64,000 nt of DNA from Pseudoselenomonas ruminantium (GTDB lineage Bacteria; Bacillota; Negativicutes; Selenomonadales; Selenomonadaceae), in NCBI GenBank assembly GCA_015058575.1, contig SVBZ01000003.1, positions 1 to 64,000 of the forward strand, in the 5' to 3' direction. The notes beneath the pieces were generated by a model. That model saw only the letters and a list, made by a program, of their open reading frames with translations. It ran no database searches and was not told where the DNA came from. This document shows positions 32,894 through 60,415 of the stretch, piece after piece (position 1 is the first letter of the stretch; each line of letters starts with the position of its first letter). Made by a program: the position numbers and the translations under genes.

Positions 32894-33844
32894 CTATTTG
32901 CTCGAAACCCGATTGGCAAAATACTGTCCTACCTTATGGATAAACTTCAATGCATCTGCTTTCATTTCATCGGGAAACGCCGTCAAGACTGGCGCCGTCT
33001 CAAAACTCAGTACCCCTTGATAATCAATATTCTTCAAACCGCGGACAAAACCTTCCCAATCAGTCGAAGAGGCATTTTCCCGCGTCCGCGTGAACGTAAA
33101 CGGAATCTGATGCAAATCCAGCCGTCCATCGTTGTCATGGATGTGCAGTACCTTCAGCCGCTGGCCAAGCCGCGTGAGGAAATGCTCGAAATCAAGCCCC
33201 ACCAGGTTCGCATGCCCTGTATCAAAGCAAAATCCCAACACCTCTGCACCATACTGCTCATTGATGCGGTCAATCCGCTCGACAGCCTTATCTACATTAC
33301 AGCACGGTCCTTCCACCATATGCCCATTCAGATTGTCGTATAGGTTCTCGATGCAGATTGTAATCCCCATCTCCTTGGCCATTGGTGCCAAATAGTGGAT
33401 GAACCGCTCTGTCTCCGCCCACTCGGCCGCCTCAGCTCCCAGGAAATACGTGAGCTTGAACCCATGGATTACAATGTAGGGGCAGTCAAAGAACTTGCAA
33501 AGCTGCATGCTCTTGGGCGCCATTTCCTCCCATAAGTAATGATTGAGCGCATCCTCCCCCTGCGGCACATAGGCAGGATATGGCATATGCATCTGCCCGA
33601 TCGTGATTCCCATCTTCTCCGCCGCCTGCTTATGCGGCTGAAAGAACGCCTCCAATTCCGCCATTGACTTGTCAAAGAAATGGCTGTTCTTCATCTTGTA
33701 GATATCCGTATTGCGCATATAGCCATTCAGGCTGAAATCTACATGCGAAAATCCCGCCTCCTTTAAGAGACGGAACCCAAGCTCAGGACATGCATCGTCT
33801 ATTACTTCTTTCGTCTGTACACCAATTCCCTGCACCGCCATCAT
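32894..33844 (-). CDS. Sugar phosphate isomerase/epimerase-like TIM barrel
   Basis: 316 aa in the AP-endonuclease-2/xylose-isomerase-like TIM barrel family. Conserved metal-site stretches: MGITIGQMHMPYP, GITICIENLYD (Glu ligand), LGFCFDTGHANLVG (Asp and His ligands), LKVLHIHDNDGRLDLH (His/Asp) and GVLSFETAP (Glu). These give a complete metal centre, so it should be an active isomerase or epimerase. The ATG at 33844 overlaps the stop of the preceding gene by 4 bp (ATGA). It is probably paralogous to that gene and may make an unusual sugar for the locus. Confidence 0.85.
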   Translation of the reverse strand: MMAVQGIGVQTKEVIDDACPELGFRLLKEAGFSHVDFSLNGYMRNTDIYKMKNSHFFDKSMAELEAFFQPHKQAAEKMGITIGQMHMPYPAYVPQGEDALNHYLWEEMAPKSMQLCKFFDCPYIVIHGFKLTYFLGAEAAEWAETERFIHYLAPMAKEMGITICIENLYDNLNGHMVEGPCCNVDKAVERIDRINEQYGAEVLGFCFDTGHANLVGLDFEHFLTRLGQRLKVLHIHDNDGRLDLHQIPFTFTRTRENASSTDWEGFVRGLKNIDYQGVLSFETAPVLTAFPDEMKADALKFIHKVGQYFANRVSSK

Positions 33845-35085
33845 TTCACCTGCTCTTTCCATGCATCCGACTCCAGCCGCTCGAAATGAAACGATGGCAT
33901 GAATTCATCATTGAACCGCTCAATTGGATTCTTTACGCCCATGTCGCGCAGCTGCTGCTCGATTTCTTCATAATATACATTACAGATAAATATCGCACAA
34001 TCCTCCGGCAAGCTGCGTAAATCCTCCGGCGCATGCACCGAAAGTCCACAGAACTCTGTCCCCCAGACCTGCGGATTATTATCACAAGTATAAAGCGGCG
34101 GAAATTCCTCGCCATAGCATTTCATATAAGCCCGGCACATATTCCCTGCACCAAACAATACCCGACTGGAATAACGCCGCAAACATTCCTCCATCTGCAC
34201 CTGCCAAGTCAGATACTCTGCCACCTTATGCGCAAAGGATAGCATCGCAGGGCGCAGCAGTCCTGACAAAGCTGTAAGCGTCGTCCGGAAGTCCAGTACC
34301 GCAGCCCCAGAGAAATCTACCGCCCGCAAACCACGGATAAGATTTAGCCAATCCATGCGCGAACCGCCGCCATGCGCCGACGAAAACGGCAGCAGCGAAT
34401 CGTCATGGATACCATCGTTTTCCCGCAGGATAACCGCCTGCAAGCGTGCGCCTAAAGCAGTCACGAAATCATACATATTGATTCCTATGAGGTTACACAC
34501 ACCCGCATCAAGACAAAAGCCCAACACCTCTGCCCCTAACGCCGCATTGATTTCATCAACGAATGCCATTGCCTGCGCTGGCTCACCACAGAACCCACGC
34601 ACCAAATGACCGTTTATATTCCTATAACTATTCATAACGAGCAAGCGGACTTTTGCCGATTGTGCCATTCGCCCCAGTCGCAGAAAGTATTCACGGTTCT
34701 TCGCAAAATTCTCTGCATAACTACCACCAGCCAGGCCACGCACCACTAGCATGTCAATACTATACTGAGCAGTCTTTTGGATACAAATCTCTGCCAGTCT
34801 TATCTCAAGTTCTTCCGAATCCGGAATCTTCTGCTCGGACTCAAAATGCGGAGCAAAAGCCAAGCCGAGTAACACTCCCTGTCGCTTGGCCTCCTCGACA
34901 TACCGATCCGCCCACTCCTGCCAATGAGCCTCAGCCTCAGCCCGCCGTTTTTTCCCAGCAAAACCACCAGCAAACAGCCCAAAATCCAGCACCGTCTCAG
35001 AAAAGCCTCTCTGAGCAAGCTTTTCCAACCCGCCACGTGGTCGCCTATGCTCAACAATCCCCACAGGAGAACAAACTATTCTCAT
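33841..35085 (-). CDS. Isomerase-like TIM barrel fused to a C-terminal Rossmann module
   Basis: 414 aa. The first 300 residues are a TIM barrel related to the next gene (MNSYRNINGHLVRGFCGEP, VLGFCLDAGVCNLIG, AVILRENDGIHDD), but metal ligands differ: the motif with Asp-x-Gly-His has become DAGVC, so it may be catalytically altered. From about residue 307 a Rossmann-like module follows (VLFGAGNMCRAYMKCYG, TCDNNPQVWG, VHAPEDL). The same module recurs in many genes to the right. ATG at 35085 has AGGTG 5 nt upstream; a GTG at 35091 is also possible. Confidence 0.78.
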   Translation of the reverse strand: MRIVCSPVGIVEHRRPRGGLEKLAQRGFSETVLDFGLFAGGFAGKKRRAEAEAHWQEWADRYVEEAKRQGVLLGLAFAPHFESEQKIPDSEELEIRLAEICIQKTAQYSIDMLVVRGLAGGSYAENFAKNREYFLRLGRMAQSAKVRLLVMNSYRNINGHLVRGFCGEPAQAMAFVDEINAALGAEVLGFCLDAGVCNLIGINMYDFVTALGARLQAVILRENDGIHDDSLLPFSSAHGGGSRMDWLNLIRGLRAVDFSGAAVLDFRTTLTALSGLLRPAMLSFAHKVAEYLTWQVQMEECLRRYSSRVLFGAGNMCRAYMKCYGEEFPPLYTCDNNPQVWGTEFCGLSVHAPEDLRSLPEDCAIFICNVYYEEIEQQLRDMGVKNPIERFNDEFMPSFHFERLESDAWKEQVK

Positions 35086-35110
35086 ACTCACACCTGCCTA
35101 AAATTATTCT

Positions 35111-35144
35111 AAAAAACCGCTGATTTCTCATTTGAAATCAGCGG
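35111..35144 (-). terminator. Terminator of the doc toxin operon
   Basis: Perfect 11-bp stem CCGCTGATTTC/GAAATCAGCGG with a 6-nt loop, then TTTTTT read leftward. The right part of the hairpin lies within the last codons and stop of the toxin gene. Confidence 0.9.
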
Positions 35145-35702: not shown

Positions 35703-35752
35703 CGTCAACACCTCCTTGACGACATTATAACATCACCACCTATCAGTTTCAA
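35702..35752 (-). promoter_or_regulatory. Promoter and inverted repeat of the Doc operon
   Basis: TTGAAA (35747-35752), 17-bp spacer, TATAAT (35724-35729). Just downstream, TCGTCAA-N7-TTGACGA (35702-35722) encloses the ribosome site AGGAGG. It could be a protein operator or an mRNA hairpin that hides the site. Confidence 0.75.
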
Positions 35753-35789: not shown

Positions 35790-38039
35790 TTATATCAGCC
35801 GTTCCGTAATCAACTTCTTGAGCTTTGTCGATGACGTACTCTGCGTATACGGGAAGAACACCATCGTGCTGCCACGTTCCTCCAGCCATGACTTCTTCTT
35901 CAGCCATATTGGATCATGTTCGTAATCACTGCCAGAGAATTGTACATCGAAGTGATAAAGCTTCCAAGCCATATTCGTATCCGGATGCTCGAAGGGGATT
36001 TCATGTGCCTCATCCACGTAGCGGCAAGCTCGCACCATTTCCAAACGCTCCTCAAAAGGAACAAAAGGCTCTACCTTCTTGCCCTCACGCACCTGACGAT
36101 CAGACACCACGCCTACAATCAAATAATCGCACTGTTCCTTGGCCCGGCGCAAAAGATTCAAATGCCCGATATGGAACAAGTCAAACACCCCAGCTACATA
36201 GCCAACATGATATTTCTTTTTCTCTTCCGCTGCATCCGGCTTCACATTATCCGTTATAGGTGTTCGCGGAATTGCATACGCCTTGCCCGGATCAAAAATA
36301 CTGTAATCGTCAATTTGCATGGACTCCAATTGCTCCATGACCGGCAAGAAATTCTTGATGCAAACAAGAACCTTGTACTCCCCTGGGTCCATATTCTCCA
36401 AGAGTACCGGCGATTGCACCTTTACCCCATGAATCTCCGTCCCCCAGGCAGCTTCATTATTGTCCACGATTGCATATACCGGATAACGGACACGGTAAAG
36501 ATCCATATACTCTCTGGCATATCTGCCACTGCCAAATAGAATTATTTTCTTGCTATCGGCATCCTGGAAAATATCCAAAAACAATCTGCGATAGTCACGC
36601 CCCAAACAATTCATATAACTCCGATTTGCTGCTACCAAACCATTATCCCGCCGTACTAAGCGGTGGTAATCTGCCAGAGGTTCCTTCTGCAGCAACTCCC
36701 GCAGGAAAGCCCACTCCATCTCCAACCATCTTTGCTTCTCCTCCAGCAAACCATAGCGGGCATATAAATCATCTTTCGGAAGTATCTTCTCCAGCTCAGA
36801 ATTCCCTGCATAGAATGTTGCAATCATACGGGTCAGTACCACATTCACGGGATAATTCTCTGCCGAAAACTCCTGATCAAAGAAAACAAATTGTCCATCT
36901 AGATAAAAGCTATTCAGCGGAACCATATCGAGAAAAGCCTCGTCAAAAAGCTCAGTTTCCCCCATATTTCCCTTCACATCCGTAAACTCTCCCCGATGTA
37001 TCGGCGAAGATGCTAAAATAGCATCCCGAAAAGCATCCATGGCTTGCAAGAAAGCGTCTTTATCTCGTTGGAGCAAATCTTTCAAATAAACCTGTCCCGT
37101 AACCGAATCGATACATGGCATGATATAGCGGTCATCCGTATCCAAACGACCTTCTACCACGGGCACGCCCTGCTCCTGTAATTTCTTCATATGCTGCGCC
37201 AAGCGTCTCAGCCGTGCCATCCCTTCCGGCGGATACGCAGCTGCTTTACTGACCGTTCCATCCGCATGTATCACCGTCATCATAGCATTTTCTTTGCCCC
37301 GCTCCAATGACGACGTAACATATAGCGCATCTGCAAAATCTGCCTTAGGCGAACATTCAATCAAATAAGCATTCGCCATAGCATGAAACAATCCATTATC
37401 CGCTAACGTACGATACAAAGACTCTTCCTGCAAAAAAACAGACCGGGGATTATGGTAACTAGGGAAAAGTCTATTGGCCAAATCCTCTTTCGGCAATTGT
37501 CCATCAGCAAATAGAAATACCGGCTCCTCCAGATTCGGCAGAACCGAATAAAACTTTCGCCGCGACCAGCCGGCAGCTTCCAACATGACCTCGATCTCTC
37601 CCCGAGCATACATCCGCCCCCGTGGAGATTGTCCCTGTCGATAATCCTCTATCCCATCAAATATTCTATGCGTATAAAGGTCACGATCCCCGCAAAAATA
37701 GCGCATCCCCAGGCGATTATTCATTGCCAATAGCAGCACGCCATCCTCTGCCAGTAATTGGCGAAGCCCTACCAAAACTTCTACCGGATCAGTTGCTTGC
37801 TCTAAAGTGCTTATCGCTACCACATAGTCAAATTTACCTTCTATACTGCTTATCTGTTCAAGACCTGCAGTAACCACGTCCATCTGAAAGACATGCCGCA
37901 GCATATCCGCCATAGCACCGTCGTCACCTAGGCACAAAACTCTGCACCCATGTCGAAACGGATACCAGCGAAGCAGTGCCGTAGGCAGCTCCGCAATCAT
38001 TTCCGCCCATTTTGCTTTAGTTGTCTCTTCTAAAAACAT
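35790..38039 (-). CDS. Multidomain methyltransferase / kinase-like / Rossmann / cytidylyltransferase protein
   Basis: 749 aa. Residues 30-160 look like a SAM methyltransferase (CRVLCLGDDGAMADML, YVVAISTLEQATDP). Residues about 240-480 have features of a small-molecule kinase-like fold (SPIHRGEFTDVKGN; FVFFDQEFSAENYPVNVVLTR), tentative. Residues 497-590 are the Rossmann module (KIILFGSGRYAREYMDLY, AIVDNNEAAWG, VQSPVLL). Residues 610-749 are a cytidylyltransferase of the TagD/GCT type (GYVAGVFDLFHIGHLNLLRRA with the HxGH site at 623-626, and PYTQSTSSTKLK). It could make a CDP-activated alcohol for the CDP-glycerol-type transferases nearby. Intact frame, good ribosome site (GAGGAAAAACT). Confidence 0.8.
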   Translation of the reverse strand: MFLEETTKAKWAEMIAELPTALLRWYPFRHGCRVLCLGDDGAMADMLRHVFQMDVVTAGLEQISSIEGKFDYVVAISTLEQATDPVEVLVGLRQLLAEDGVLLLAMNNRLGMRYFCGDRDLYTHRIFDGIEDYRQGQSPRGRMYARGEIEVMLEAAGWSRRKFYSVLPNLEEPVFLFADGQLPKEDLANRLFPSYHNPRSVFLQEESLYRTLADNGLFHAMANAYLIECSPKADFADALYVTSSLERGKENAMMTVIHADGTVSKAAAYPPEGMARLRRLAQHMKKLQEQGVPVVEGRLDTDDRYIMPCIDSVTGQVYLKDLLQRDKDAFLQAMDAFRDAILASSPIHRGEFTDVKGNMGETELFDEAFLDMVPLNSFYLDGQFVFFDQEFSAENYPVNVVLTRMIATFYAGNSELEKILPKDDLYARYGLLEEKQRWLEMEWAFLRELLQKEPLADYHRLVRRDNGLVAANRSYMNCLGRDYRRLFLDIFQDADSKKIILFGSGRYAREYMDLYRVRYPVYAIVDNNEAAWGTEIHGVKVQSPVLLENMDPGEYKVLVCIKNFLPVMEQLESMQIDDYSIFDPGKAYAIPRTPITDNVKPDAAEEKKKYHVGYVAGVFDLFHIGHLNLLRRAKEQCDYLIVGVVSDRQVREGKKVEPFVPFEERLEMVRACRYVDEAHEIPFEHPDTNMAWKLYHFDVQFSGSDYEHDPIWLKKKSWLEERGSTMVFFPYTQSTSSTKLKKLITERLI

Positions 38040-38087: not shown

Positions 38088-39422
38088 TCAAAGCTGTTTA
38101 CGCAGCATTTGATCCAGCCGATATACGTGTTTAAATCCATATTTGACCAAGTTTTTATATAGTTCATACTGAAGCGATTCCGTCACAGCGATGACTACAG
38201 CCCCAGACGCAGCGTATTGTTGGAGGTCCTGGAGTTCCTGTACAGGAATCCCACCACACCTATCAGTGGATTCATCTTTTTGCGTTACAGCAAAACAAGT
38301 AACCGGAATACCTCTAACTCGCAATCGCTCATGAAGCCATTGCCCTACTTTCCCGGCTCCATATATTATCAATTGAGGATACTTGGTAATACCAGTAATC
38401 CACCCATCCACATACAGATCTTCATTTTGAAATTCACAAAGTTCAAAGCGCGGATCATGTAACTCTTTGGCACTTGACAAGAAAAAGGCATATAAATCTT
38501 CATGCATACGGCTAATTTTGTCCCATACATCAGGACGGAATACATCCTTTTTAATACGCCCAGCATGAAAATCAACGTCAAAAGAATTGGCCATCTTTAG
38601 CAGCAATGCATATTGATAAGGTGCTGCCACACGATAATAATGATTCAGATAATCTCCATATTTCGTAGCAACAAAATTCTGTTCAAGTACCGGAAAATGT
38701 TTCCATTTCTCTTCCAATATTTCTTCCAGCCACTCATATTCATCAAATACATTCATTATCCGACGCGGATTATGCATAGATGAATCCCCATTATCCCGGC
38801 GATAATACACAAACGCATCCGGTAACAAATATATGCGTTTAGCTTTTACCCATACTTGTATCGCGAAGGATATATCCTGGAAAGCTGCGCCTGGTGTTTC
38901 ATGAAAGTAGATTTTCTGCTGCTCTAGAAAGGAACGACGATAAATCCCAGACCAAATAGTATCTGCTTTATTGATAATTTGAGGAACCATGACCGCATTA
39001 ATCGAAACCTCCATAGGATAGTCTTGCAATGAATCTCTAAATTCCGTCCTATCCTCATAAAAGTTATAATAATTAGCCTTGACCACATCAGCCTGTTGCT
39101 CAATTGCCGCTTCGTACAATTTTTCAAAAGCTTCTCGAGCAATAAAATCATCACTTTCCAAAATACCGACATATTCTCCTGTCGCTTGGGACAGCGCCAC
39201 GTTCATTGTATTACCATAGCCCGTATTCACTTTATGGAAAACCTTTATACGAATATCCTTATTGGCATATTCGTCAAGAATTTTTCCACTAGCATCTGTA
39301 GATCCATCATCAATTGCAATGATCTCAATATCATTCATAGTTTGATTTATTAAGCTATCCAAACAAGTAGATAAATACCGTTCAACATTATAAACTGGAA
39401 CTAATACTGAAATTTTAGGCAT
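38088..39422 (-). CDS. GT2 glycosyltransferase fused to Rossmann module
   Basis: 444 aa. GT-A fold family 2: SVLVPVYNVERYLSTCLDSL, IIAIDDGSTDASGKI, and YVGILESDDFIAREAF (DD metal motif). The C-terminal 90 residues (from about 350) are the Rossmann module: LIIYGAGKVGQWLHERL, CFAVTQKDES, GGIPVQEL. The frame opens at 39467 but the ATG at 39422 has GGAGG 7 nt upstream and gives the normal GT2 start. It follows another GT2-Rossmann fusion gene. Confidence 0.9.
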   Translation of the reverse strand: MPKISVLVPVYNVERYLSTCLDSLINQTMNDIEIIAIDDGSTDASGKILDEYANKDIRIKVFHKVNTGYGNTMNVALSQATGEYVGILESDDFIAREAFEKLYEAAIEQQADVVKANYYNFYEDRTEFRDSLQDYPMEVSINAVMVPQIINKADTIWSGIYRRSFLEQQKIYFHETPGAAFQDISFAIQVWVKAKRIYLLPDAFVYYRRDNGDSSMHNPRRIMNVFDEYEWLEEILEEKWKHFPVLEQNFVATKYGDYLNHYYRVAAPYQYALLLKMANSFDVDFHAGRIKKDVFRPDVWDKISRMHEDLYAFFLSSAKELHDPRFELCEFQNEDLYVDGWITGITKYPQLIIYGAGKVGQWLHERLRVRGIPVTCFAVTQKDESTDRCGGIPVQELQDLQQYAASGAVVIAVTESLQYELYKNLVKYGFKHVYRLDQMLRKQL

Positions 39423-39435
39423 TATGAATCCTCCA

Positions 39436-40677
39436 TTACAAATACGCTTTAGATAATAGCGATGCAATATTTTTTTTATATGCTTTTAAACTCATAATCT
39501 TATCTTTAGGAACCTTCCATTTTTCTCGAAGCTCCTCTACAGCTTCTTCTACAGCCTCTTTACTATATATTGCAACAACAAGAATATCAAATTTCATTTC
39601 TTTAATTGCCGAAATTGGTTGTATATCTCGATGCTGATCCTGCAGATAATAACCAGCCATTTTCTTACTTACAGCATTAGCTTTATCAAAATTCTTATCA
39701 ACGATAGCCACGATCTTTTCATACCAACCACGCTGCCATAACTCTTTATATAAGGCGTGTCCACATACTCCAGCACCATATATAACAATTTCTTTCCCAT
39801 ATAGGTGTTCAATTTCAGGAAAATACCATAAATTAACACGATCTAAATCTATACCATAAAGCCCCCGAAGGACTCTAACATTTAATAAAATAGCATATTG
39901 GTACAATTGTGGCATCAAAACATTAGCATAAGCAGATTCCTCAAACGCTTCCTTCAAATTGCAATACAATCTATACATATTTTCCGGCTCATTTACATTT
40001 GGCTTAGTTTCTGCTGAGCCAGAATGTATATCATAATGATAGAATATTTCTCTCATTATATATATACTTTTGCAAGCTAAACAGTATCGATATAAAATCA
40101 TTGCATCTTCACCATAAAACACACGTGTATCTATCTTATTTACAACCGCTTTAAGTAGTTTAGCTCGAAAAAATTTAGTAACCAAATAACAACGTAACCC
40201 TTTTGTATTTCGCGAAAAATCATGTAACATTATCGGATAAAAATCTGTTGATAAATCGGTATATAAACCACTATTGTAATTATCAAAAATTATTTCATTA
40301 TATCCATTTTCATGGTGTCCATAAACATCACTAGACACCAAGTCACACTTATATTGCTTCATTTTTTCATATAATCGAGTATACATATACGGTTCTATCC
40401 AGTCATCACTATCTACAAATCCTATATATTCCCCTGTCGCAAGTTCTATTCCTTTTTTTCTTATAGATGCAATACCTTGGTGCTCGCACTTGAATGCTTT
40501 TATTCTAACATCCTTTTTTTGGTACTCTGATATTACCCTATAACTATTGTCTAAAGAACCATCATCTAACAATAAGATTTCCAAATCCGTATACGTTTGT
40601 GCAAGAATGCTATCCAAACAGCGAGATAAATATTTTTCTACATTATAAACTGGTACGATTATAGAAATAACAGACAT
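39436..40677 (-). CDS. GT2 glycosyltransferase fused to Rossmann module
   Basis: 413 aa, same architecture as its neighbour: SIIVPVYNVEKYLSRCLDSI, ILLLDDGSLDNSYRV, YIGFVDSDDWIEPYMY. The C-terminal module starts at about 295 (EIVIYGAGVCGHALYKELWQ, AIVDKNFDKANA). The two GT2 genes are similar at the N-terminus but their C-terminal modules diverge, so the duplication is not recent. The DNA is clearly AT-rich from here rightward. Confidence 0.9.
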   Translation of the reverse strand: MSVISIIVPVYNVEKYLSRCLDSILAQTYTDLEILLLDDGSLDNSYRVISEYQKKDVRIKAFKCEHQGIASIRKKGIELATGEYIGFVDSDDWIEPYMYTRLYEKMKQYKCDLVSSDVYGHHENGYNEIIFDNYNSGLYTDLSTDFYPIMLHDFSRNTKGLRCYLVTKFFRAKLLKAVVNKIDTRVFYGEDAMILYRYCLACKSIYIMREIFYHYDIHSGSAETKPNVNEPENMYRLYCNLKEAFEESAYANVLMPQLYQYAILLNVRVLRGLYGIDLDRVNLWYFPEIEHLYGKEIVIYGAGVCGHALYKELWQRGWYEKIVAIVDKNFDKANAVSKKMAGYYLQDQHRDIQPISAIKEMKFDILVVAIYSKEAVEEAVEELREKWKVPKDKIMSLKAYKKNIASLLSKAYL

Positions 40678-40692
40678 TATATTATCACCATC

Positions 40693-42201
40693 TCATCCCA
40701 TTAAATCTAAAATAAATTTTGCGGCACGTTCACTTGCATGACCATCCTCATTTACACCATAACTATTTAGAAATTCTTCCAATTTTTTTAGGTAATCATT
40801 CTTTGAAAATGACCTTATATTATTTAATAATTCATTATTACTCTTAGCTACAGGAAATGGCAAATCATTATAATCAATTAGTAACTGTCGTTCATTTTTT
40901 AAATACTCATCTAAATCAGGCGCATACAAAAATATCGGTCTTTTTATAAAAGCTGCCTCAAACATAACACTGGAATAATCAGATATTAAAATATCCGCTG
41001 CTGCAACTAGCTCTTCCGCATCACTATACTCACTAACATTTATGACATTATTATCAATTTCATATTTAGAAACAAATTGTTTCACAGCAGGATGTAACCG
41101 TAATAAGAATACATAATTCTCATTATATTTTCCTTTTAACTCCTTACAAATCGCCCCAAAATCAATATCTATATATTGTTCATCAATTCCATAACTTGTT
41201 CCTTTTTTATGACGAAATGTAGGTGCATATAATATAATTTTATCTGTATCTTTTATATGGTAATACTTTCTTATTTTGATATAGTTATCATTGCAAAAAG
41301 CACCATCTGATCTTGGTGATCCAATATGCTTATACACACCATTAAAATTAAAACCTTTTCGACACGTATCTTCATCAAATTTAGAACCAACGAAAAAGAA
41401 ATCCGTATTGTCAATTGTGTATTTTACAGCCGCAACCATATTTTCGTTTTTCACAAATAAACAATCGTCCAAATAAAACTTTTTCAAAGTTATACTTGAC
41501 CAATGCTTTACCTGAATCCATAATTGCCCTCTTGGTTTTTGAACACATGAATACGGCAACGCATTATCCATAATTATAATCTTCGAATCTCTAAATTCAT
41601 TACATAGCTCAACTGGATGCGAAATTTTTACCTGAACTACACCTGGAGGTGCATCCTTTCTACACTGTTCGACACCCCAAATAATGTCTATATTATGGCT
41701 TTTTTCTAACAATTTATTCGTAATATATTTCCCATGATCACCATAATCATTCATAAAAATAAAAACCGAGTGATTATTTTGGGGTATAGTAATCGAATTA
41801 CTTTCGAAATACTCCAATGTATTTTTGTCCAATTCTTCACTAGAAAAAACATTCTCATAGTGTTTTTTATACAAAGCCGATTCTATTGCACTTCCATCTT
41901 TTATTGCTAATATTACGATCGTCCTGCTAGGATTATAATTATTCAATAGCCACTGAAAATTACGGATTATAATTTCTTTAGTTACAAACTCACTATCATC
42001 CTCCCATACATCCTTAAGCAAGCGTTCTTGCTTAAGGGGATCATTATCAATAACACAATCAAAATCTAATTGATTACCTTGGCGAATAAAAGTAAGCCTG
42101 CCACGCTTCCCAGCACCAAATAAAACAATTTTGTACTTCACCTCCATTTTTTTGACATCGAACCAAGTATGTATTTTATTATCGTACATCATATCACCCA
42201 T
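40693..42201 (-). CDS. CDP-glycerol glycerophosphotransferase-like enzyme with N-terminal Rossmann module
   Basis: 502 aa. Residues 22-125: Rossmann module (YKIVLFGAGKRGRLTF, CVIDNDPLKQERLL). From about 140 a TagB/TagF-type GT-B transferase follows: APTFRHKKGTSYG, NYVFLLRLHPAVKQF, NVSEYSDAEELVAAADILISDYSSVMFEAAFIKRPIFLY (the last holds the conserved Asp-Tyr-Ser-Ser). Such enzymes transfer polyol-phosphate from CDP-polyol. The start overlaps the stop of the HAD gene by 8 bp. In an organism without typical teichoic acids this probably modifies an outer-surface glycan. Confidence 0.87.
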   Translation of the reverse strand: MGDMMYDNKIHTWFDVKKMEVKYKIVLFGAGKRGRLTFIRQGNQLDFDCVIDNDPLKQERLLKDVWEDDSEFVTKEIIIRNFQWLLNNYNPSRTIVILAIKDGSAIESALYKKHYENVFSSEELDKNTLEYFESNSITIPQNNHSVFIFMNDYGDHGKYITNKLLEKSHNIDIIWGVEQCRKDAPPGVVQVKISHPVELCNEFRDSKIIIMDNALPYSCVQKPRGQLWIQVKHWSSITLKKFYLDDCLFVKNENMVAAVKYTIDNTDFFFVGSKFDEDTCRKGFNFNGVYKHIGSPRSDGAFCNDNYIKIRKYYHIKDTDKIILYAPTFRHKKGTSYGIDEQYIDIDFGAICKELKGKYNENYVFLLRLHPAVKQFVSKYEIDNNVINVSEYSDAEELVAAADILISDYSSVMFEAAFIKRPIFLYAPDLDEYLKNERQLLIDYNDLPFPVAKSNNELLNNIRSFSKNDYLKKLEEFLNSYGVNEDGHASERAAKFILDLMG

Positions 42202-44206
42202 TTTTCCCCATAGGTTTATTAATTAAATTATCTATGAATGATACTACAGAAAATAATTTATTTTCTGTTTCTTCGTCAATATAATGATGTGAAAAGAACA
42301 ACATTTCCCCTATCGTCGAATTTAATGGAGCATGTGGTATATATAACTTATCAATAAATGTCAAATAAAAGCTTTCAATTCCATTAAAGCATTCTTGTAA
42401 CCATTTTAATTGGTGATTATCCTTATGATTTGAATCAAAAACAGGCTCTCCATTACCATCAAAACAAATCACCGATGCCTCTGGTGAAGTTAAAACATTT
42501 TCCAAAATGAAAACTTCACTTACATTAAAAGAGTAGGCATCTGTATCCAATTTATTCATCATATATTTTACATTTATATTTCCCAAACTTGTTCCGATAT
42601 TTATCCCCATGTAATATCCATTAAGGTCTTTGTTTAAACCTCTGTTTAGATAATACTGTGATGTTCCAGAAGATATCAAATCAACAAATACACCTCTAGA
42701 TAAATCTATATTATTTTTACTTAAATATATTTTATAGTTTTCTCTATATTTTTGTGACAAACAAATTGCATGTTCAGTATTAGATACTTCTTCTAAATAT
42801 ATTTCATTTAATACATTAGTGCCAATTTTTTTCCTTATATCATATATATCAGTAACATCATTTATACTGGAATTAACAGCTGCTTTTCGTGATGTATAAA
42901 AATACACAGCATCAGGTAATTCTCCAAAATATTTAGCTAAATTATATTTTTTATATAATTTATAAAAAATATACCCATCCCGAGAAGCAAATAAAATTTG
43001 CTTATACTTAGATTTTGCAGCTTGCACCACAATCCATACCATAAAAACTGTCACAAGGGGGGCAATGAAGCATCTACAGTAATCATAGAGTGTCATTGAT
43101 TCTATTTTTTTTCCTATACATCTAGTAAATGGATCATTAAATAATATAGATATGTATGCCCCTAAAAGGGAACGCTCATTAATACCTGCTGCGGCAAAAG
43201 CCATATATGAGTTCATTTTGTACAACATACTTCTGCTGCTAGGAATAATAAATGAGTCTATCCCATATATCTGTGCTGCCAAACCATCAGCGACCTTATT
43301 ATCACCTATATGTAAAAACCGTTTCCCATGTACTTTGCTTTTTAATACACCAAACAATCCATTAGTTTTAGGCACGCCTTCAAAGCCAGATATCAATATT
43401 CCATCATAGCCTTTAATTCCATTGTTATGGAGCAGTTCCCCTAGAATCGATTCTGGTAAATACATGTCAGAAACTAAGTATATTTTCTTATTTAAAGCTT
43501 TCGCTTTTCGATAGGTATCTACCATTCTACTGCGAGAAATAATAACATCTCTTTCTACAGCAATTTCGATCTCTTTTATTATTTCACACTCTCGATCGCT
43601 TAAATTTTCCTGTCGCTTTAATGCAATATATATTCCATCCAGCGTATGGTTATTTTTTTCTATTGCCAGACGTTCTGCAATCATACGCTTAACTTTAAAT
43701 TCCGGAATTATAATCCCTTCATCTTTTATTCGATATTCCACAATATCGAATACGTCTTCAGGAGTTAAGGTTCTTCTCATCAATAATGTATCAAAAATAT
43801 CAAATGTAATTACATCATGAGATTCTATTTCACTTTTCAAAAAATCAGCATCGATTTTTTCACTGGAATTACACTCCCATACTTTGCTATCAAGCGTTTC
43901 TGTAAGATTATTTCCGAATCGATCCATCACCGTGATTGAATTTGCTTTGCATATATCTGATATCCTATCATATATTATCTTTTCATTATTTAGAGCTGAT
44001 AAAATAATGACCAAATCAATATTATTATCAACAGCGTCTTCCAGTGAAAGAATAGGATACCCCTCGAATACACCTTCGCTCTTTTTCCCATCTAATATAC
44101 AGTATATTGATATGTCATTTTTTTCATCAATAAATTTCTTTGCATTTAAGCCTGTTCCATACAAAGCAATTTTTTTATATTTTTGATACGTAGTACATTT
44201 CTGCAT
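42194..44206 (-). CDS. HAD-superfamily protein (COG5610-like) with N-terminal Rossmann module
   Basis: 670 aa. Residues 11-95: Rossmann module (KKIALYGTGLNAKKFI, CILDGKKSEGVFEGYPIL). Residues 130-340: HAD domain with motif I DIFDTLLMRR (D136, D139), motif II region IYLVSDMYLP and motif IV LHIGDNKVADGLAA. The C-terminal 330 residues (QILFASRDGYIFYKLYKKY, VFVDLISSGTSQYYLNRGL) form a second conserved region seen in this family. HAD members of this type occur in glycan loci; substrate unknown. It is immediately left of the IS4-like element. Confidence 0.83.
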   Translation of the reverse strand: MQKCTTYQKYKKIALYGTGLNAKKFIDEKNDISIYCILDGKKSEGVFEGYPILSLEDAVDNNIDLVIILSALNNEKIIYDRISDICKANSITVMDRFGNNLTETLDSKVWECNSSEKIDADFLKSEIESHDVITFDIFDTLLMRRTLTPEDVFDIVEYRIKDEGIIIPEFKVKRMIAERLAIEKNNHTLDGIYIALKRQENLSDRECEIIKEIEIAVERDVIISRSRMVDTYRKAKALNKKIYLVSDMYLPESILGELLHNNGIKGYDGILISGFEGVPKTNGLFGVLKSKVHGKRFLHIGDNKVADGLAAQIYGIDSFIIPSSRSMLYKMNSYMAFAAAGINERSLLGAYISILFNDPFTRCIGKKIESMTLYDYCRCFIAPLVTVFMVWIVVQAAKSKYKQILFASRDGYIFYKLYKKYNLAKYFGELPDAVYFYTSRKAAVNSSINDVTDIYDIRKKIGTNVLNEIYLEEVSNTEHAICLSQKYRENYKIYLSKNNIDLSRGVFVDLISSGTSQYYLNRGLNKDLNGYYMGINIGTSLGNINVKYMMNKLDTDAYSFNVSEVFILENVLTSPEASVICFDGNGEPVFDSNHKDNHQLKWLQECFNGIESFYLTFIDKLYIPHAPLNSTIGEMLFFSHHYIDEETENKLFSVVSFIDNLINKPMGKNG

Positions 44207-47028: not shown

Positions 47029-47077
47029 CAATAATTTATCTCCTTAGAAAATACATATTTCCAATTATTATTATTGT

Positions 47078-49396: not shown

Positions 49397-49421
49397 GATA
49401 AGCCTCTCCATAGATAGTTTT

Positions 49422-50471
49422 TCAGGATATATCGAATAGTGCTTGCAATGATACTATATTTTTATATCCCAACTTGTTTAATTTCGCCTCTATTTCATCA
49501 TAATAAGTGATTGCTGTAACAATGACAACATCTACTTCTATATCTCCATTTTCTGGAATCAAGGCCCTAGTCCCTTCCAGCCTGTTAGACAGTGCCCTTA
49601 CATCTAATATATCAATCACGTTTATTTTAGTTTTATCGATTTCTCTATAAAACAATTTTCCTAATTCAGAAAATCCATAAATGGAGATATTCTTCCAATC
49701 TTTTTCTACCAACAATTTAGTTATTTCATTACCATCTTGATAATTTTTTATCCAACGTAAAAGCAATCTATAAAATGCCTGATATTTTTGAAGCGTTTTT
49801 TCTCTTTCTATTAATTCGTCTATTTCTGATTCTTTTTGAATGTCTATTTTTTTAAACGTTTCCCAATATGACTCCTTATCGCCCCCTTGACAAGCACGAT
49901 ACTTTCCCAAAGCACAAGCGATATCGACATATGGCAAACTAACCATTTGATCTTTATGACAAGAAATAAACGTTCTTTTCTTATCCATTACATCAGTAAT
50001 ATCCACATAATGTGATACATCATGAAATGGAACGTGTACCTCATATTGATACACATCTGCCATGACGTTCAAATCTTTTAAATAATTAACAGCAAAATAG
50101 CATACTGCAGCATGATCTGGATGATTATCATCCTCCCAAGGAATAAAAATTTTAGTATAAGAAGAAAAATCTATATTTTGAAAGATATTCTTGCCGTGTC
50201 TCGTCAACATCCCATCTTCATAACCTAACCAAAAAAAAGAATTCACCTCTGCTAATTTCATCTCTTCTTCAAATTGTTTCCTTCGAATCTCCGCTTCTTT
50301 TTCAGAAGACACACTTATATTTCCCTGTCTACCATCGGTAACTACAAACACATCACATTGAGAAGCATATTTTGCCATCACGCCACCTACTCCTATGCAT
50401 TCGTCGTCGGGATGTGGCGCAATAATTGCTATCTTATCATCCTTTTCAAAACATATAGGTAATACTGTCAT
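49422..50471 (-). CDS. PIG-L (LmbE) family deacetylase with C-terminal Rossmann module
   Basis: 349 aa. Zinc-dependent N-deacetylase: AIIAPHPDDECIGVGGVMA (HPDDE) and EDDNHPDHAAVCYF (HPDH) are intact. The C-terminal module starts at about 260 (NISIYGFSELGKLFYREI, IDILDVRALSNRLEGTRALIPE); here the second Gly-rich position is FSE, so nucleotide binding may be altered. The GTG at 50489 is rejected because ATG at 50471 has GGGGAAG upstream. Likely removes an acetyl group from an N-acetylated sugar, with the GNAT-like neighbour adding another group. Confidence 0.87.
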   Translation of the reverse strand: MTVLPICFEKDDKIAIIAPHPDDECIGVGGVMAKYASQCDVFVVTDGRQGNISVSSEKEAEIRRKQFEEEMKLAEVNSFFWLGYEDGMLTRHGKNIFQNIDFSSYTKIFIPWEDDNHPDHAAVCYFAVNYLKDLNVMADVYQYEVHVPFHDVSHYVDITDVMDKKRTFISCHKDQMVSLPYVDIACALGKYRACQGGDKESYWETFKKIDIQKESEIDELIEREKTLQKYQAFYRLLLRWIKNYQDGNEITKLLVEKDWKNISIYGFSELGKLFYREIDKTKINVIDILDVRALSNRLEGTRALIPENGDIEVDVVIVTAITYYDEIEAKLNKLGYKNIVSLQALFDIS

Positions 50472-50491
50472 AACACTCTTCCCCAACACAG

Positions 50492-51495: not shown

Positions 51496-52614
51496 TTATT
51501 GCGTTAAAGAATCACCATCAAGATAAATAAAACTGCTCTCATGCAATCGTGCATGCAATCGTGCCAAAGCCTGCATAGGTCCCTTCCTTTCGCCAAACCA
51601 CGATCCTCCATTTCTATGGATGATAAACGTCTTATCATTCACGTATTCATAGCCACAACATACCCCTTCATCTATAAACAGCTCACCTGGATACACCGTC
51701 ATCCCTTGAAGGTACTGCAAATCACCATTCCGAATCAACCCATGTCGTTCCAGAATTTCTGTTTCGTAATCCATGCAGACCTTCATCTCTGTTCGCTTTT
51801 TCATCATGAACGACTCCGTATCGTATGCATCCATCCATTCTTTAATTACGCTATTGTGAGCCTGTCCTCCGAATCCGAGGCCAGAACCAATTTGATTACG
51901 TACAAAGGCACAAAATCCCTTCTGATAGCACAACTCATCCAAGGGACGCAACACCTCTACATCTGCATCAAAGTAAATCCCACCATACTGATAAACAACA
52001 TCCTTCCGCGCATAATCGGATACAAATGCCCAACAGCCTTGCTCAGCTGCTTGCTTCATGTAATGATGTTTGCTGATATCATAATTAGTTTCATCCCATC
52101 TTCTGATTTCCCAACCAGGACAGTTCTTGTTCCAACTGTCTATGCAGTTTTGATATAATTCAGGCAAGGGCCTTCCCCCAAACCAACAGTAATGTATGAT
52201 ATGGGGAATAATTTGCTTTTCTTCCAATCGAAATGTACTAGGGATTTTATGTCCTTCGTAAGAGTATCCCGCCATAATACTGTAGGCGGTGTAGCATACA
52301 GCATCTTTCAGCTCAGCTATATTACTCAACTGAAGCAGAATCTCCATTGTTGCATTGACTCCAGTCGTCAATATCCATTCAGCATTACGACCGCCGCATC
52401 GAATCGCTTCCTGCGGTGACATAATTTCCAAGCTCCTGCCATGATAAAGTATTCTCCTCCCCCAGTGAGCGGTATTATTGTCCACAACGCCAATAATATC
52501 GTTGTCAAGATTAATCATCTCACAAAACTTCTGATAAACCATGCCCGATCCCCAAAATACAATAGGCACTCGTCTATCAGACAATTCGTGACTACTTGTC
52601 AATCCCAAGTACAT
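51496..52614 (-). CDS. GT32-like sugar transferase with N-terminal Rossmann module
   Basis: 372 aa. Residues about 15-110: Rossmann module (VPIVFWGSGMVYQKFCEM, GVVDNNTAHWG, IMSPQEAI). From about 135: Gly_transf_sug/GT32 (IPHIIHYCWFGGRPLPE, DYARKDVVYQYGGIYFDADVEV with the DxD at 216-218, and later HRNGGSW). Intact frame; start has GAGAGGAAAAGA. GC content is higher than in its neighbours, which may mark a different origin. It stands apart, with 349 bp of non-coding DNA upstream and mobile DNA downstream. Confidence 0.87.
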   Translation of the reverse strand: MYLGLTSSHELSDRRVPIVFWGSGMVYQKFCEMINLDNDIIGVVDNNTAHWGRRILYHGRSLEIMSPQEAIRCGGRNAEWILTTGVNATMEILLQLSNIAELKDAVCYTAYSIMAGYSYEGHKIPSTFRLEEKQIIPHIIHYCWFGGRPLPELYQNCIDSWNKNCPGWEIRRWDETNYDISKHHYMKQAAEQGCWAFVSDYARKDVVYQYGGIYFDADVEVLRPLDELCYQKGFCAFVRNQIGSGLGFGGQAHNSVIKEWMDAYDTESFMMKKRTEMKVCMDYETEILERHGLIRNGDLQYLQGMTVYPGELFIDEGVCCGYEYVNDKTFIIHRNGGSWFGERKGPMQALARLHARLHESSFIYLDGDSLTQ

Positions 52615-52963: not shown

Positions 52964-53863
52964 CTATTTAATAACAGCTATACTGCAATGATCACCAATA
53001 GGAAACTTACGTAATAATCCTCCTGTTTCTTGTTCGTAATCTTTTACCGCTTTGTTTACGCTCGGCAACTCTGGATGAAAAAAATCATGCAACAAAATCA
53101 CACCGCCACTTGACATTTTAGGATAGAAGAATCGCAATCCCTCTAACATAGGCTGATACAAATCCATGTCAAGATTCACAAAGCAAAAAATATCATCAAC
53201 GTCTGCTGCGCTTTCAGGGAAGTATCCAACACAAAACTCACAAAGATTTATATTTTCCATTCGCTTTTTCACAGTATTTATATTCGTACATAAGAAGCCA
53301 TCTCTTTTATTAAACTCACCTCTTAGAAAAGACTCATTTCCAATTGCACGCTCTACATCCAAGTCTTTTTCTGAGAAGCCTTCAAACGTATCAAATAAAT
53401 AACATCTCCTATCGTAAAAATACTTGTTTATATAATATGCAAATTCTCCTCTGTTGACTCCAGCTTCAGCTACGCTTCCATTTATCTTTTCCTCATAAAC
53501 ATATTTCGAAAAAGATTTTACCCAATTTACTCTTATATCAGATTCATCATAACGATTATGATTTGAAAAAACTTTTGTTTTAAGTTCCTCATCCTCAAGC
53601 AGAAAAATACATTTTTCTCTTGGCACATGCAATTCACATAGCTGTTTCCTTATCTCCTCCCTAGCTGTTTCTGAAGCTACTGATACAACGATTTTATCAT
53701 ATTCTAATTTTTGTATCTCTTCTGGTCGTTTCACCAACCCGTTTTCTAAATTATCATTTTTATTGTCTATCCAACCAATTATTATATGTGATGTATGTTC
53801 CTTAATATATTTTTCAAAAATCTTTCCATTGCGACCGGCCCCAAATATCAAAATCTTAGCCAT
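52964..53863 (-). CDS. TylF-like methyltransferase with N-terminal Rossmann module
   Basis: 299 aa. Residues 3-90: Rossmann module (KILIFGAGRNGKIFEKYIK, GWIDNKNDNLENGLVKRPEEI). From about 125: TylF/macrocin O-methyltransferase family (VAEAGVNRGEFAYYIN, YLFDTFEGFSEKDL, FVNLDMDLYQPMLEGLRFFYPKM, GGVILLHDFFHPEL), with the SAM site and the metal-binding Asp residues. Probably O-methylates a sugar. Good GAGGGGAGAAAG ribosome site. Confidence 0.88.
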   Translation of the reverse strand: MAKILIFGAGRNGKIFEKYIKEHTSHIIIGWIDNKNDNLENGLVKRPEEIQKLEYDKIVVSVASETAREEIRKQLCELHVPREKCIFLLEDEELKTKVFSNHNRYDESDIRVNWVKSFSKYVYEEKINGSVAEAGVNRGEFAYYINKYFYDRRCYLFDTFEGFSEKDLDVERAIGNESFLRGEFNKRDGFLCTNINTVKKRMENINLCEFCVGYFPESAADVDDIFCFVNLDMDLYQPMLEGLRFFYPKMSSGGVILLHDFFHPELPSVNKAVKDYEQETGGLLRKFPIGDHCSIAVIK

Positions 53864-55624: not shown

Positions 55625-56182
55625 CTAAATCTTTTTTTGTATCAGTACATCCTGACTGAAAATATTATTGCTGAAATAGCTTGCATCACAATCATACACA
55701 TCACAACTCAACGCATCTACATTATAATATTTTGCCAGTATCAATCTATGAAAACAATCCATCAAACAGTAATCCCTGGCAATCTTCACATTATAATCTT
55801 GAAAGAATCCTTTATTCTCGAATTGGTAGATCCTATCTTTAAACCTATTCCACCTTTGTTCGGCAGACTTAAAGGTCGTGAAATGCATATAAGTTTTCTT
55901 ATATATCGCTCCATTATATTTATTATGTCCTAGATAATCGCACAACGAAAAATAATAAACTGCTGGCAAGCAACCACTATGCAGATTCTTAATCAGTTTA
56001 CTCACTTTCACTGGTATATTTCTTTGAACCGGCTCTCCAACTTCTATATCAAACAGGTGATGATATATACTGATGACTCTCGTAAATCCCAGTGCTCTAG
56101 CATATTTTTCCATTTCAAGAGCCGCATCATCATGAGCTGCTATAAACACCAGACTACTTCTATCAACTTCATCTATCGACAT
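55625..56182 (-). pseudogene. 5'-truncated relative of the Rossmann plus ParB-like protein
   Basis: 185 codons remain. The start (SSLVFIAAHDDAALEMEKYARALG) is the second half of the Rossmann module; its glycine-rich first half is missing and the adjacent 500 bp is mobile-looking DNA. The C-terminal half (RWNRFKDRIYQFENKGFF ... DYCLMDCFHRLILAKYYNVDAL) aligns with residues about 180-225 of the gene at 58506. The ATG at 56182 may be accidental. Could be expressed as a remnant. Confidence 0.65.
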
Positions 56183-57611: not shown

Positions 57612-57672
57612 ACGCATAGCCCTCTGGTATAATGGTGTTTGCGACAACCCATTTCCATGAGGAACTATGCGT
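57612..57672 (+). promoter_or_regulatory. Leader hairpin of the IS30-family transposase
   Basis: ACGCATAG-C-CCTC (57612-57624) pairs with GAGG-AA-CTATGCGT (57659-57672), which includes the ribosome site and start codon. TATAAT lies between the arms (57628-57633). The plan is the same as in the IS4-like element. Confidence 0.65.
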
Positions 57673-58494: not shown

Positions 58495-58505
58495 CAATCC
58501 GTCAC

Positions 58506-59324
58506 CTAATAATAAATATAACTTAAATACTTATTTTTTTCCTCAAGAGCATTTTGTTCTGACTGAGTAAACTTCAATAAATGTATATTCGCAATCAGAG
58601 GAATAGCCGCTGGATTATGTATTTCTTTATATGGAACCGTTTCTGGATATATCTCACATTTTACATTCGATAACCGATGATATAACGCTAATGAAATACG
58701 ATGCGCACCATCAACTATTAACCCATTCCCCAATATTTTAACTGGTTTATTTTCATCATAACCTTTCTTTTCCCAATTAATAATAAGTTTCAAAAATTCT
58801 CTTAGCCTTTTTTCCACCACATCATCAGCTGAATCTAGTAATTTGATTGACTTTTTATATATTTCGTACCCATAATCATTTTTTCCATAATATTGTTCGA
58901 TTGCTAAATATCTTGCAGGTAACACTATACTATCTTTGCTCGCACGCCATATTGTTGTCAAACTAACATCGCTTATATAAGGCTTTCCCAACATAACTTC
59001 ATACAAAAATGGGTATATCCATATATACTCTCTATAGCCTTTTTTTTGCAAAGCAATTTCTATTTGGGGAACTATTGCCTCATGCACTGCAATCAATACC
59101 AAAGGGTTTGAATACTTTTTTAATCCGTCCAGGCTTATAACTGGAAAACCTTCTACACTTGTCACTGTATTTGACGAAGTCACGTATGCTTTAATTCTTT
59201 CGCCTAACCCTTGCCTTCTCAACGTTTTAAAAAAACGTTGTGCAACATATCCCGCCCCATAAATCACACACTCTCTAGAAGCTATTATTCTTTTTAAATC
59301 ATCAGCATCCTTAATATTTAACAT
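58506..59324 (-). CDS. Rossmann module fused to ParB/sulfiredoxin-like domain
   Basis: 272 aa. Residues about 17-105: Rossmann module (ECVIYGAGYVAQRFFKTL, AYVTSSNTVTSVEGFPVISLDGL). The C-terminal half (NWEKKGYDENKPVKILGNGLIVDGAHRISLALYHRL) has the GxHR pattern of ParB/sulfiredoxin-like NTP-binding domains (DGAHR at 205-209). I know no named function for this combination. ATG at 59324 is used; a TTG at 59342 is an alternative. The gene begins the segment right of the IS30 copy. A damaged second copy lies at 55625. Confidence 0.7.
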   Translation of the reverse strand: MLNIKDADDLKRIIASRECVIYGAGYVAQRFFKTLRRQGLGERIKAYVTSSNTVTSVEGFPVISLDGLKKYSNPLVLIAVHEAIVPQIEIALQKKGYREYIWIYPFLYEVMLGKPYISDVSLTTIWRASKDSIVLPARYLAIEQYYGKNDYGYEIYKKSIKLLDSADDVVEKRLREFLKLIINWEKKGYDENKPVKILGNGLIVDGAHRISLALYHRLSNVKCEIYPETVPYKEIHNPAAIPLIANIHLLKFTQSEQNALEEKNKYLSYIYY

Positions 59325-59362
59325 TGATAAATAATTCCTCAATCTTTACGACCTGCTAATAT

Positions 59363-60415
59363 TCATACCGCATATAAAACAGTATCATTACCAGAAAATG
59401 AATACGTACGTAAATACATTTTATAATCAGGGTGAATTCTTAGTAAAAAAATTGGAATATCCCATATATCATTTCGCTTATGATATACGCTTATAGCAAG
59501 CTTTGGCCTGCTTTTTTTTATCGTATTCACTGCCCCCTGCAAAGCTCGCAGCTCTGAACCCTCTATATCCATTTTTATAAAAGTAGCTCTTTTATTACTT
59601 ATCACAGAATCAATACTTTTTACGTGTATTTCTTCCCCACTGACAACATCAGTTTGTATTGTCCTGTCCCCTGCAATATCTTGTCCTTTCTTTAAACGAA
59701 GAATTGTATCTTCATTCCACAAACCGCATTCATAATACTTGATCTTATCAGGAGTAGTTATCTTAGCTAAATTATTTTTACATTTATGCATTAAATCCGA
59801 ATTTGGTTCAAATAAATATATCTTTCGATAATCTCCGCCACACCATCTTATAAATTGCTCTGAAGTCTCACCCTGGAACCCCCCACAATCAACAAATATT
59901 TCTTCAGGACAATGTTGTAACACATCCAAATCAAAATACTGACATTCCTCTGCCATTTTCCCCATAATAAGTAAGTTTTGTTTAGATATTCCTTCATTCA
60001 TAAATTGAGCAACAACTGATTGATAATTAAATAAAATAGAAATAACAATATAATATTCATGTAGTTTGGGACGCATATCATCAAAACTAAACACTTTCAA
60101 TCCATTTATCGTTTGACCACTTTTTTTATTATCTATAAAGCAATCTACTTTAATATCCGGGAAGAAATTTACAATAGATTTTCCCCATGTACCTGCTCCA
60201 AATAAAGCAACCTTTTTTTTTGTCATAGCTACTTTCTCGAGTAGCACCTTTCCCAATACACTATTTCGTACAATTTCTTTCATGTACTTTTTTTCATCAG
60301 TTAAACTATATAACGAACGACTTAAATATATCTGTCTTGATATATCGTCCTGAAGCTGATTATATACATTTTTTAGAGATACAGTATTTTCTTCTTCACC
60401 ATAAAAGCTATCCAT
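59363..60415 (-). CDS. FkbM-family methyltransferase with Rossmann module
   Basis: 350 aa. Residues about 66-150: Rossmann module (KKVALFGAGTWGKSIVNFF, CFIDNKKSGQTINGLKVF). From about 185: FkbM methyltransferase (EIFVDCGGFQGETSEQFI, IYLFEPNSDLM, VKSIDSVISN, TFIKMDIEGSELRALQGA). Catalytic stretches are intact. O-methylation of a glycan sugar is likely. The ATG at 60415 has GGAGG 5 nt upstream; the GTG at 60427 is part of that site. Stop and start nearly touch the epimerase gene. Confidence 0.88.
   Translation of the reverse strand: MDSFYGEEENTVSLKNVYNQLQDDISRQIYLSRSLYSLTDEKKYMKEIVRNSVLGKVLLEKVAMTKKKVALFGAGTWGKSIVNFFPDIKVDCFIDNKKSGQTINGLKVFSFDDMRPKLHEYYIVISILFNYQSVVAQFMNEGISKQNLLIMGKMAEECQYFDLDVLQHCPEEIFVDCGGFQGETSEQFIRWCGGDYRKIYLFEPNSDLMHKCKNNLAKITTPDKIKYYECGLWNEDTILRLKKGQDIAGDRTIQTDVVSGEEIHVKSIDSVISNKRATFIKMDIEGSELRALQGAVNTIKKSRPKLAISVYHKRNDIWDIPIFLLRIHPDYKMYLRTYSFSGNDTVLYAV

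What the first reader, a model, noticed from the sequence alone, without database searches (positions are those of the whole stretch)
33841..60415. One Rossmann-like module fused to at least 14 unrelated glycan enzymes in a single locus
Seen directly: a segment of about 85-100 residues with [FYW]G[ASTM]GxxG, a short strand ending in D[NEK], a G-x-x-V-x-x-P turn and a final [ILV]xx[AT]x..LxxxG helix occurs in genes at 33841 (C), 35790 (internal), 38088 (C), 39436 (C), 40693 (N), 42194 (N), 45865 (C), 47078 (C), 48290 (C), 49422 (C), 51496 (N), 52964 (N), 58506 (N) and 59363 (N/middle), plus a half copy at 55625. The partner domains include TIM barrel, cytidylyltransferase, GT2, GT32, DUF5672, TagF-like, HAD, GNAT, PIG-L, TylF, FkbM and ParB-like. 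Known: the N-domain of PglD-type acetyltransferases has a similar pattern and binds UDP-sugars. Inference: the module is a shared ligand-binding or docking unit that gathers these enzymes on a common carrier or scaffold. I do not know of a described system with this many different fusions in one cluster.
Basis: partly seen in the sequence, partly recalled or inferred. Interest (0 to 1): 0.9.

Follow-up and report, generated by a model that had tools for sequence, protein, structure and literature searches.

The report
One binding module, many glycan enzymes
In one stretch of a Selenomonas chromosome the same small protein module, which likely binds a nucleotide or nucleotide-sugar, is joined to 14 proteins of 12 kinds, mostly predicted sugar-processing enzymes, and related bacteria repeat the arrangement with other enzymes, so the module would act as a shared sensor that tunes a whole surface-sugar pathway.

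Summary
The observation largely holds. Fourteen segments of about 87-110 residues in 14 genes (33841-60427, all minus strand) are one domain. A model grown from a Lachnospiraceae-MAG module without window-strain sequences finds these 14 on the contig (E 4e-25 to 6e-5) and no other ORF searched. Partners are of 12 kinds, not 14 (GT2 and DUF5672 occur twice). The "half copy" at 55625 is not significant. Two divergent copies, predicted with confidence, share the nearest solved structures: Rex, 3nkl, 2g6t. The module belongs to the Rossmann superfamily of PglD_N, the WbaP nucleotide-sensing domain and Rex, but 12 of 14 copies reach no Pfam cut-off. It is a shuffled cassette: 76 module pairs at 40% identity or more have undetectably related partners. 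Of 81 family genomes, 27 hold 5 or more copies, strongly clustered. Best explanation: a nucleotide(-sugar) sensing accessory domain, by analogy with WbaP; ligand binding is untested. Docking on a scaffold has less support, since modules of one genome are no more alike than those of different genomes, but stand-alone modules with a predicted membrane helix keep it open.

The parts
33898..34173 (-). module A, C-terminal, in gene 33841-35091 (xylose-isomerase-like TIM barrel, PF01261)
   Evidence: E 3.7e-25
36279..36557 (-). module B, internal, in gene 35790-38039 (methyltransferase-like N part, cytidylyltransferase-like C part PF01467)
   Evidence: E 2.7e-21; structure model pLDDT 94.2
38100..38384 (-). 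module C, C-terminal, in gene 38088-39467 (GT2, PF00535); lacks the acidic residue at the end of strand 2 (AVTQ)
   Evidence: E 1e-15
39472..39801 (-). module D, C-terminal, in gene 39436-40677 (GT2, PF00535); as a segment also over the Pfam cut-offs of TrkA_N, Shikimate_DH and F420_oxidored
   Evidence: E 3.7e-9
41824..42141 (-). module E, N-terminal, in gene 40693-42201 (CDP-glycerol glycerophosphotransferase-like, PF04464); divergent
   Evidence: E 3.9e-6; missed in leave-one-out
43910..44179 (-). module F, N-terminal, in gene 42194-44206 (HAD-like, sub-threshold PF00702)
   Evidence: E 2e-10
45892..46182 (-). module G, C-terminal, in gene 45865-47031 (DUF5672, PF18922)
   Evidence: E 6.6e-14
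47126..47422 (-). module H, C-terminal, in gene 47078-48277 (DUF5672, PF18922)
   Evidence: E 4.6e-10
48305..48565 (-). module I, C-terminal, in gene 48290-49411 (GNAT, PF13480)
   Evidence: E 5.7e-5; structure model pLDDT 89.0
49431..49700 (-). module J, C-terminal, in gene 49422-50489 (PIG-L deacetylase, PF02585); preceded by a linker segment that aligns with small module-only proteins
   Evidence: E 4.4e-10
52273..52578 (-). module K, N-terminal, in gene 51496-52614 (GT32-like, PF04488)
   Evidence: E 1.5e-7
53582..53863 (-). module L, N-terminal, in gene 52964-53863 (TylF, PF05711); the only window copy over the PglD_N cut-off
   Evidence: E 5.2e-15
58998..59282 (-). module N, N-terminal, in gene 58506-59342 (no Pfam partner; ParB-like DGxHR motif by recall); lacks the acidic residue
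   Evidence: E 4.9e-12
59945..60223 (-). module O, internal, in gene 59363-60427 (FkbM methyltransferase, PF05050)
   Evidence: E 1.4e-16
55625..56182 (-). gene with a possible remnant of the second half of the module at its N-terminus; not established
   Evidence: 2.3 bits, profile 48-80 aligned to residues 3-33; best of 200 shuffles 3.5 bits

Best explanation
The locus fuses one small Rossmann-type domain to 14 proteins of 12 kinds, mostly predicted glycan enzymes, and the domain likely works as an interchangeable nucleotide or nucleotide-sugar sensor that adjusts each enzyme to the state of the pathway. Shown by calls: 14 homologous copies, recurrence and clustering in relatives, similar modules (40-52% identical) on unrelated partners, the predicted fold, and a glycine-loop and acidic signature kept in most copies. 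Inferred: that the pocket binds a nucleotide (UMP/UDP/CDP-like, or an NDP-sugar) and that binding changes the activity of the fused enzyme, as reported for the structurally similar domain of WbaP, whose truncated form is stabilised by UMP, UDP and UTP and whose full-length enzyme is inhibited by UMP (PMC10942596). Such a sensor would not depend on the chemistry of its partner, which fits fusions to transferases, a deacetylase, methyltransferases, an isomerase-like barrel and a cytidylyltransferase.
Against: No ligand was tested. 114 of 266 modules lack the full signature, and 30 have V in place of the acid (28 of them followed by S/T); C and N here are of that kind. That may mean another ligand or none. 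Neighbours also include NAD(H)-binding Rex, CoA-binding SucD and, for copy I, many NAD(P) dehydrogenases, so the ligand class is not fixed. The PF13727 model of the WbaP domain matched no window protein or segment scanned; the link to WbaP rests on fold and on weak profile hits (entries 30us, 9s7s, 30wc, 9s8l at E 0.0016-0.0017 with A1 and 0.0002 with A2; 8t53 at 0.03-0.04). The WbaP sensing result is one study.
Confidence: 0.45

Rival explanations
1. The module holds the NDP-sugar substrate for the fused enzyme, as PglD-type N-domains do (recalled), rather than sensing.
Against: Several partners do not obviously use NDP-sugars (GNAT, PIG-L, HAD-like, TIM barrel, cytidylyltransferase), and family members without the module exist in the island.
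Confidence: 0.22
2. The module is a docking unit: modules bind each other or a membrane-anchored module, gathering the enzymes into one assembly.
For: Tight clustering: 147 of 150 listed hits within 10 kb of another against about 10 expected. Small module-only proteins occur in the clusters, two of them (L131:8234-8698, L115:11341-11826) with an N-terminal transmembrane helix by hydropathy, sharing a linker with an invariant W with the PIG-L fusion of the window. WbaP is a dimer with contacts at this domain.
Against: Modules with unrelated partners are no more alike inside one genome than between genomes (0.207 both). WbaP's contact at this domain is made almost entirely by a beta-hairpin with its apex at residue 259, outside the aligned range 145-243.
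Confidence: 0.2
3. Structural hitch-hiker: the domain only stabilises its partner and spreads because glycan loci recombine often.
For: Mosaic locus: strain comparison shows blocks of 85-90% identity, divergent blocks and one block at 99.6%. 114 of 266 modules (43%) lack the full signature.
Against: Glycines at positions 6 and 8 (97% and 89%) and D30 (83%) stay conserved among 266 diverse modules, more than stability alone would seem to need (inference).
Confidence: 0.1

Closest known systems
WbaP/CpsE DUF (PF13727), large monotopic phosphoglycosyl transferases
   Different: There it sits on one enzyme family; here on 12 partner kinds in one locus. The dimer hairpin near residue 259 lies outside the aligned range. 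No PF13727 match.
PglD_N (PF17836), N-domain of sugar acetyltransferases
   Same: Pfam model matched by most modules (8 of 49 at E<=0.01); similar glycine loop
   Different: Only 1 of 14 window copies passes its cut-off; no hexapeptide acetyltransferase partner among the 14
C2185-like_N (PF22674) and PDB 2g6t (that the two are the same protein is my inference)
   Different: A search of the window's genome with PF22674.2 finds none of the 14
Methyltransf_14 (PF08484), C-methyltransferase C-terminal domain
   Different: A fixed part of one methyltransferase architecture (recalled)
Rex NAD(H)-binding domain
   Different: No Rex DNA-binding domain in the window proteins

Membership tests
PglD_N (PF17836) | score over the curated cut-off (23.4 bits) | tested here: not met
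   1 of 14 window copies (L52964) passes; the others are below or undetected (A, H, I and J were scanned only as whole proteins)
PglD_N (PF17836) | fused to a left-handed beta-helix acetyltransferase (feature recalled) | tested here: not met
   no such partner in Pfam scans of the 14 hosts
C2185-like_N (PF22674) | score over the curated cut-off (27 bits) | tested here: inconclusive
   own-genome search with PF22674.2 finds none of the 14; but a precomputed list gives PF22674.3 for P0001, 99% identical to the module region of O59363, and 2 of 49 modules match at E<=0.01
CoA_binding_3 / WbaP DUF (PF13727) | match to the Pfam model | tested here: not met
   absent from Pfam scans of the 14 hosts at E<=0.1 and of 10 of the 14 segments at E<=10
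CoA_binding_3 / WbaP DUF (PF13727) | binds UMP/UDP and regulates the fused enzyme | not testable with these tools
   needs biochemistry; precedent seen in PMC10942596
Rex | N-terminal DNA-binding domain before the Rossmann domain | tested here: not met
   none in Pfam scans of the 14 hosts
Rossmann superfamily of Rex/PglD_N/WbaP domains | same fold and detectable profile similarity | tested here: met
One module family in the window | each copy found by a model built without it | tested here: met
   14 of 14 with the window-free model; 13 of 14 in leave-one-out
Nucleotide(-sugar) binder | GxGxx[GA] loop plus acid at the end of strand 2 | tested here: inconclusive
   152 of 266 non-redundant modules have all four; 233 have both first glycines, 226 the acid

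The most novel reading that the evidence does not exclude
A portable allosteric cassette puts a whole glycan locus under one small-molecule signal: enzymes of every step, from sugar-phosphate handling to transfer and decoration, carry the same sensor, and membrane-anchored stand-alone copies link the enzymes at the membrane, giving a pathway-wide switch or assembly built by domain shuffling.
Probability: 0.25. Interest if true: 0.88.

Novelty: new variant of a known kind. Interest (0 to 1): 0.62.

Why it matters
A single enzyme family with a nucleotide-sensing accessory domain is known (WbaP, PMC10942596). A locus in which a dozen kinds of enzyme carry a domain of that superfamily, repeated with other enzymes in many genomes of the same family and in at least two Lachnospiraceae MAGs and one Clostridium MAG, would be a general solution to coordinating surface-glycan synthesis. 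The module is a cheap marker for such loci, gives a family context to uncharacterised partners such as DUF5672, and is small enough to test directly.

Tried and rejected
Several unrelated Rossmann families: rejected, because one window-free model finds all 14. But hhalign does not separate modules from Rex and PglD_N: module-module probabilities are 85-100, Rex-module 94-99, PglD-module 56-98, and some cross-subgroup scores (B-I 36) are below Rex-module scores (B-Rex 57). The profile sets overlap, which inflates scores inside subgroups.

Locus-specific ligand or interface: no signal. Flagellin locus: 6 flagellin matches in the genome, none on this contig, so the carrier of the glycan is unknown. 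PF22674 as the module's name: conflicting. Half copy 55625: not significant. Word-based protein searches found only 3 and 8 near relatives of two hosts.

Literature: 10 searches of open-licence PMC listed no paper that by title or start of abstract describes this fusion set. Only PMC10942596 was opened (passages, its section 9); the rest were seen as listings with the start of the abstract. Statements about PglD and Methyltransf_14 ligands, Rossmann contact positions and the ParB label are recall.

Counts and dropped rows. The first iterated set (331 proteins, 98 partner clusters, 108 shuffled pairs) held truncated duplicates from overlapping loci. On non-overlapping loci, without proteins at locus ends, the counts are 272 proteins, 77 clusters (68 with a member of 190 aa or more) and 76 pairs in 50 proteins. 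The conservation set (266) is non-redundant at 60% but still holds a few PglD- or oxidoreductase-like hits. 15 of 98 cluster representatives were dropped before the Pfam scans (fragments, locus edges, PglD/oxidoreductase-like). Phylum counts (64 of 398) include Rex: of 12 places with frames of about 206-249 aa that I fetched, 9 show the GxGNxG pattern of Rex. Clustering uses 150 listed of 199 matches in 20 genomes, partly chosen because they had clusters; one search uses the 150 listed of 342 matches (my sum of the table) of the evenly drawn family sample, 136 without G000.

Full report
What was checked. The window is bases 1-64000 of a 108,313-base contig of a 2.84 Mb, 59-contig genome. Named relatives by the 749-aa gene B: Selenomonas sp. 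ND2010 (95% identity) and S. ruminantium GACV-9 (77%); records of the window's own genome may be left out of that list. Fourteen segments were cut from 14 minus-strand genes and aligned.

Partners. Pfam finds TIM barrel, cytidylyltransferase (with a weak methyltransferase part), GT2 twice, CDP-glycerol glycerophosphotransferase-like, HAD (below cut-off), DUF5672 twice, GNAT, PIG-L, GT32-like, TylF and FkbM; one partner has no Pfam match. That is 12 kinds in 14 proteins. The module is N-terminal, internal or C-terminal. In the module region 12 of the 14 reach no Pfam cut-off; L passes PglD_N, and D passes TrkA_N, Shikimate_DH and F420_oxidored (A, H, I and J were scanned only as whole proteins).

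Elsewhere. With the 14-row alignment, 47 of 81 genomes of the same family match at E<=1e-5, and 27 of 81 (the window's own included) hold 5 or more, up to 26. In an even sample of the phylum 64 of 398 match, a figure that includes Rex hits; at most 12 candidates per genome were scored. In 20 chosen genomes 147 of the 150 listed hits lie within 10 kb of another hit, against a mean of 9.9 and a maximum of 27 in 1000 random placements. In the family sample without the window's genome 103 of 136 listed hits lie within 20 kb of another, against a mean of 8.7 and a maximum of 21. On non-overlapping fetched loci, without proteins at locus ends, 272 proteins carry the module: 143 copies C-terminal, 102 N-terminal, 29 in the middle; their partner parts form 77 single-linkage clusters (before this clean-up 331 proteins and 98 clusters). 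Of the 98, 83 representatives were scanned: the rows shown (the 25 most frequent families of 35, and of 36) hold 40 Pfam names, including radical SAM, GT4-like, GT8, GT9, GT11, GT56, WbsX, GT-D, RgpF, TupA, pyruvyl transferase, polysaccharide deacetylase, WavE, MptE-like and FrhB. Ten proteins from genomes with 1-3 copies carry TIM barrel, FkbM, radical SAM or C-methyltransferase partners.

Shuffling. 76 pairs of modules at 40% identity or more over 60 residues or more, in 50 proteins, sit in proteins whose other parts share no BLASTP hit at E<=0.01; 4 pairs are in one locus. The locus itself is mosaic. The fetched stretch of ND2010 matches 28.7-40.7 kb at about 87% and not the rest of its length. 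The fetched stretch of GACV-9 matches 24.4-38.0 kb at 85-90% with a gap, 48.3-56.1 kb at 87%, and 58,435-62,395 at 99.6%, next to a transposase-like gene; the outer ends of the first and last block are set by the ends of the fetched stretch. GC falls from about 0.50 (up to 35.1 kb) to 0.28-0.43 from 38 kb on.

Conservation. In 266 modules non-redundant at 60% the strongest well-filled positions are G6 (97%), G8 (89%), D30 (83%), L75 (81%), I71 (67%) and G11 (59%, A 20%); G79 is 88% where present, and a KWG turn after the acid is weaker. G6, G8, G11 and D30 are where Rossmann domains contact the nucleotide (general knowledge). A class of 30 has V30, 28 of them with S/T31; copies C and N look like it.

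Mechanism. The domain is an accessory: two FkbM and two DUF5672 proteins at the other end of the island have no significant module. The best-documented relative is the WbaP domain: the isolated domain is stabilised by UMP, UDP and UTP, destabilised by UDP-Gal, and the full enzyme is inhibited by UMP with IC50 4.1 uM; the authors propose nucleotide sensing (PMC10942596). A sensor of a common by-product or building block could usefully be fused to enzymes of any chemistry. This explains the breadth of partners better than substrate holding does. That our module binds and senses is inference.

Docking. If all modules of a locus bound one co-evolving partner, modules of one genome should resemble each other more than modules of different genomes. 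They do not (964 same-genome and 26,473 different-genome pairs with unrelated partners, both 0.207). The test is weak against a generic interface. For docking speak small module-only proteins: 10 under 190 aa away from locus ends, in 9 loci (whether each is a complete gene was not tested). Two have a predicted transmembrane start, and five sequences including the PIG-L fusion share a linker with an invariant W. Seven related small proteins are in the large protein set, some near-identical to the queries.

Verdict. Real, recurrent and, in the ten searches made, not found described (listings only apart from PMC10942596). The domain type is known; its use as a locus-wide cassette is the new part.

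Noticed in passing
58435-62395: About 4 kb is 99.6% identical to S. ruminantium GACV-9 (G050) while other long shared blocks are 85-90%: likely a recent transfer beside a transposase-like gene at 57667-58494 (HTH_38 and weak rve). The block may go further; the fetched stretch ended there.
   Followed up: partly
L131:8234-8698 and L115:11341-11826: Small module-only proteins with an N-terminal transmembrane helix by hydropathy, inside glycan clusters.
   Followed up: partly
53878-55461: GT2 whose C-terminal part is DUF6270 instead of the module.
   Followed up: no
29761-31344; L009:14928-19801: GT41-type proteins at both ends of the island (PF13844).
   Followed up: partly
44664-45698, 51129-51389: Transposase fragments in the low-GC island (DDE_5, DDE_Tnp, rve).
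   Followed up: partly
28083-28397, 31361-32834, 35128-35535: Toxin-antitoxin-type genes among the glycan genes: ParE-like, AbiEii with a weak AbiEi match, Fic/Doc.
   Followed up: partly
L092:7427-8737: A protein with two module hits and an MptE-like domain.
   Followed up: no
L008:8062-9432: Cytidylyltransferase-like domain fused to a Gfo/Idh oxidoreductase, another cytidylyltransferase fusion in the same island.
   Followed up: no
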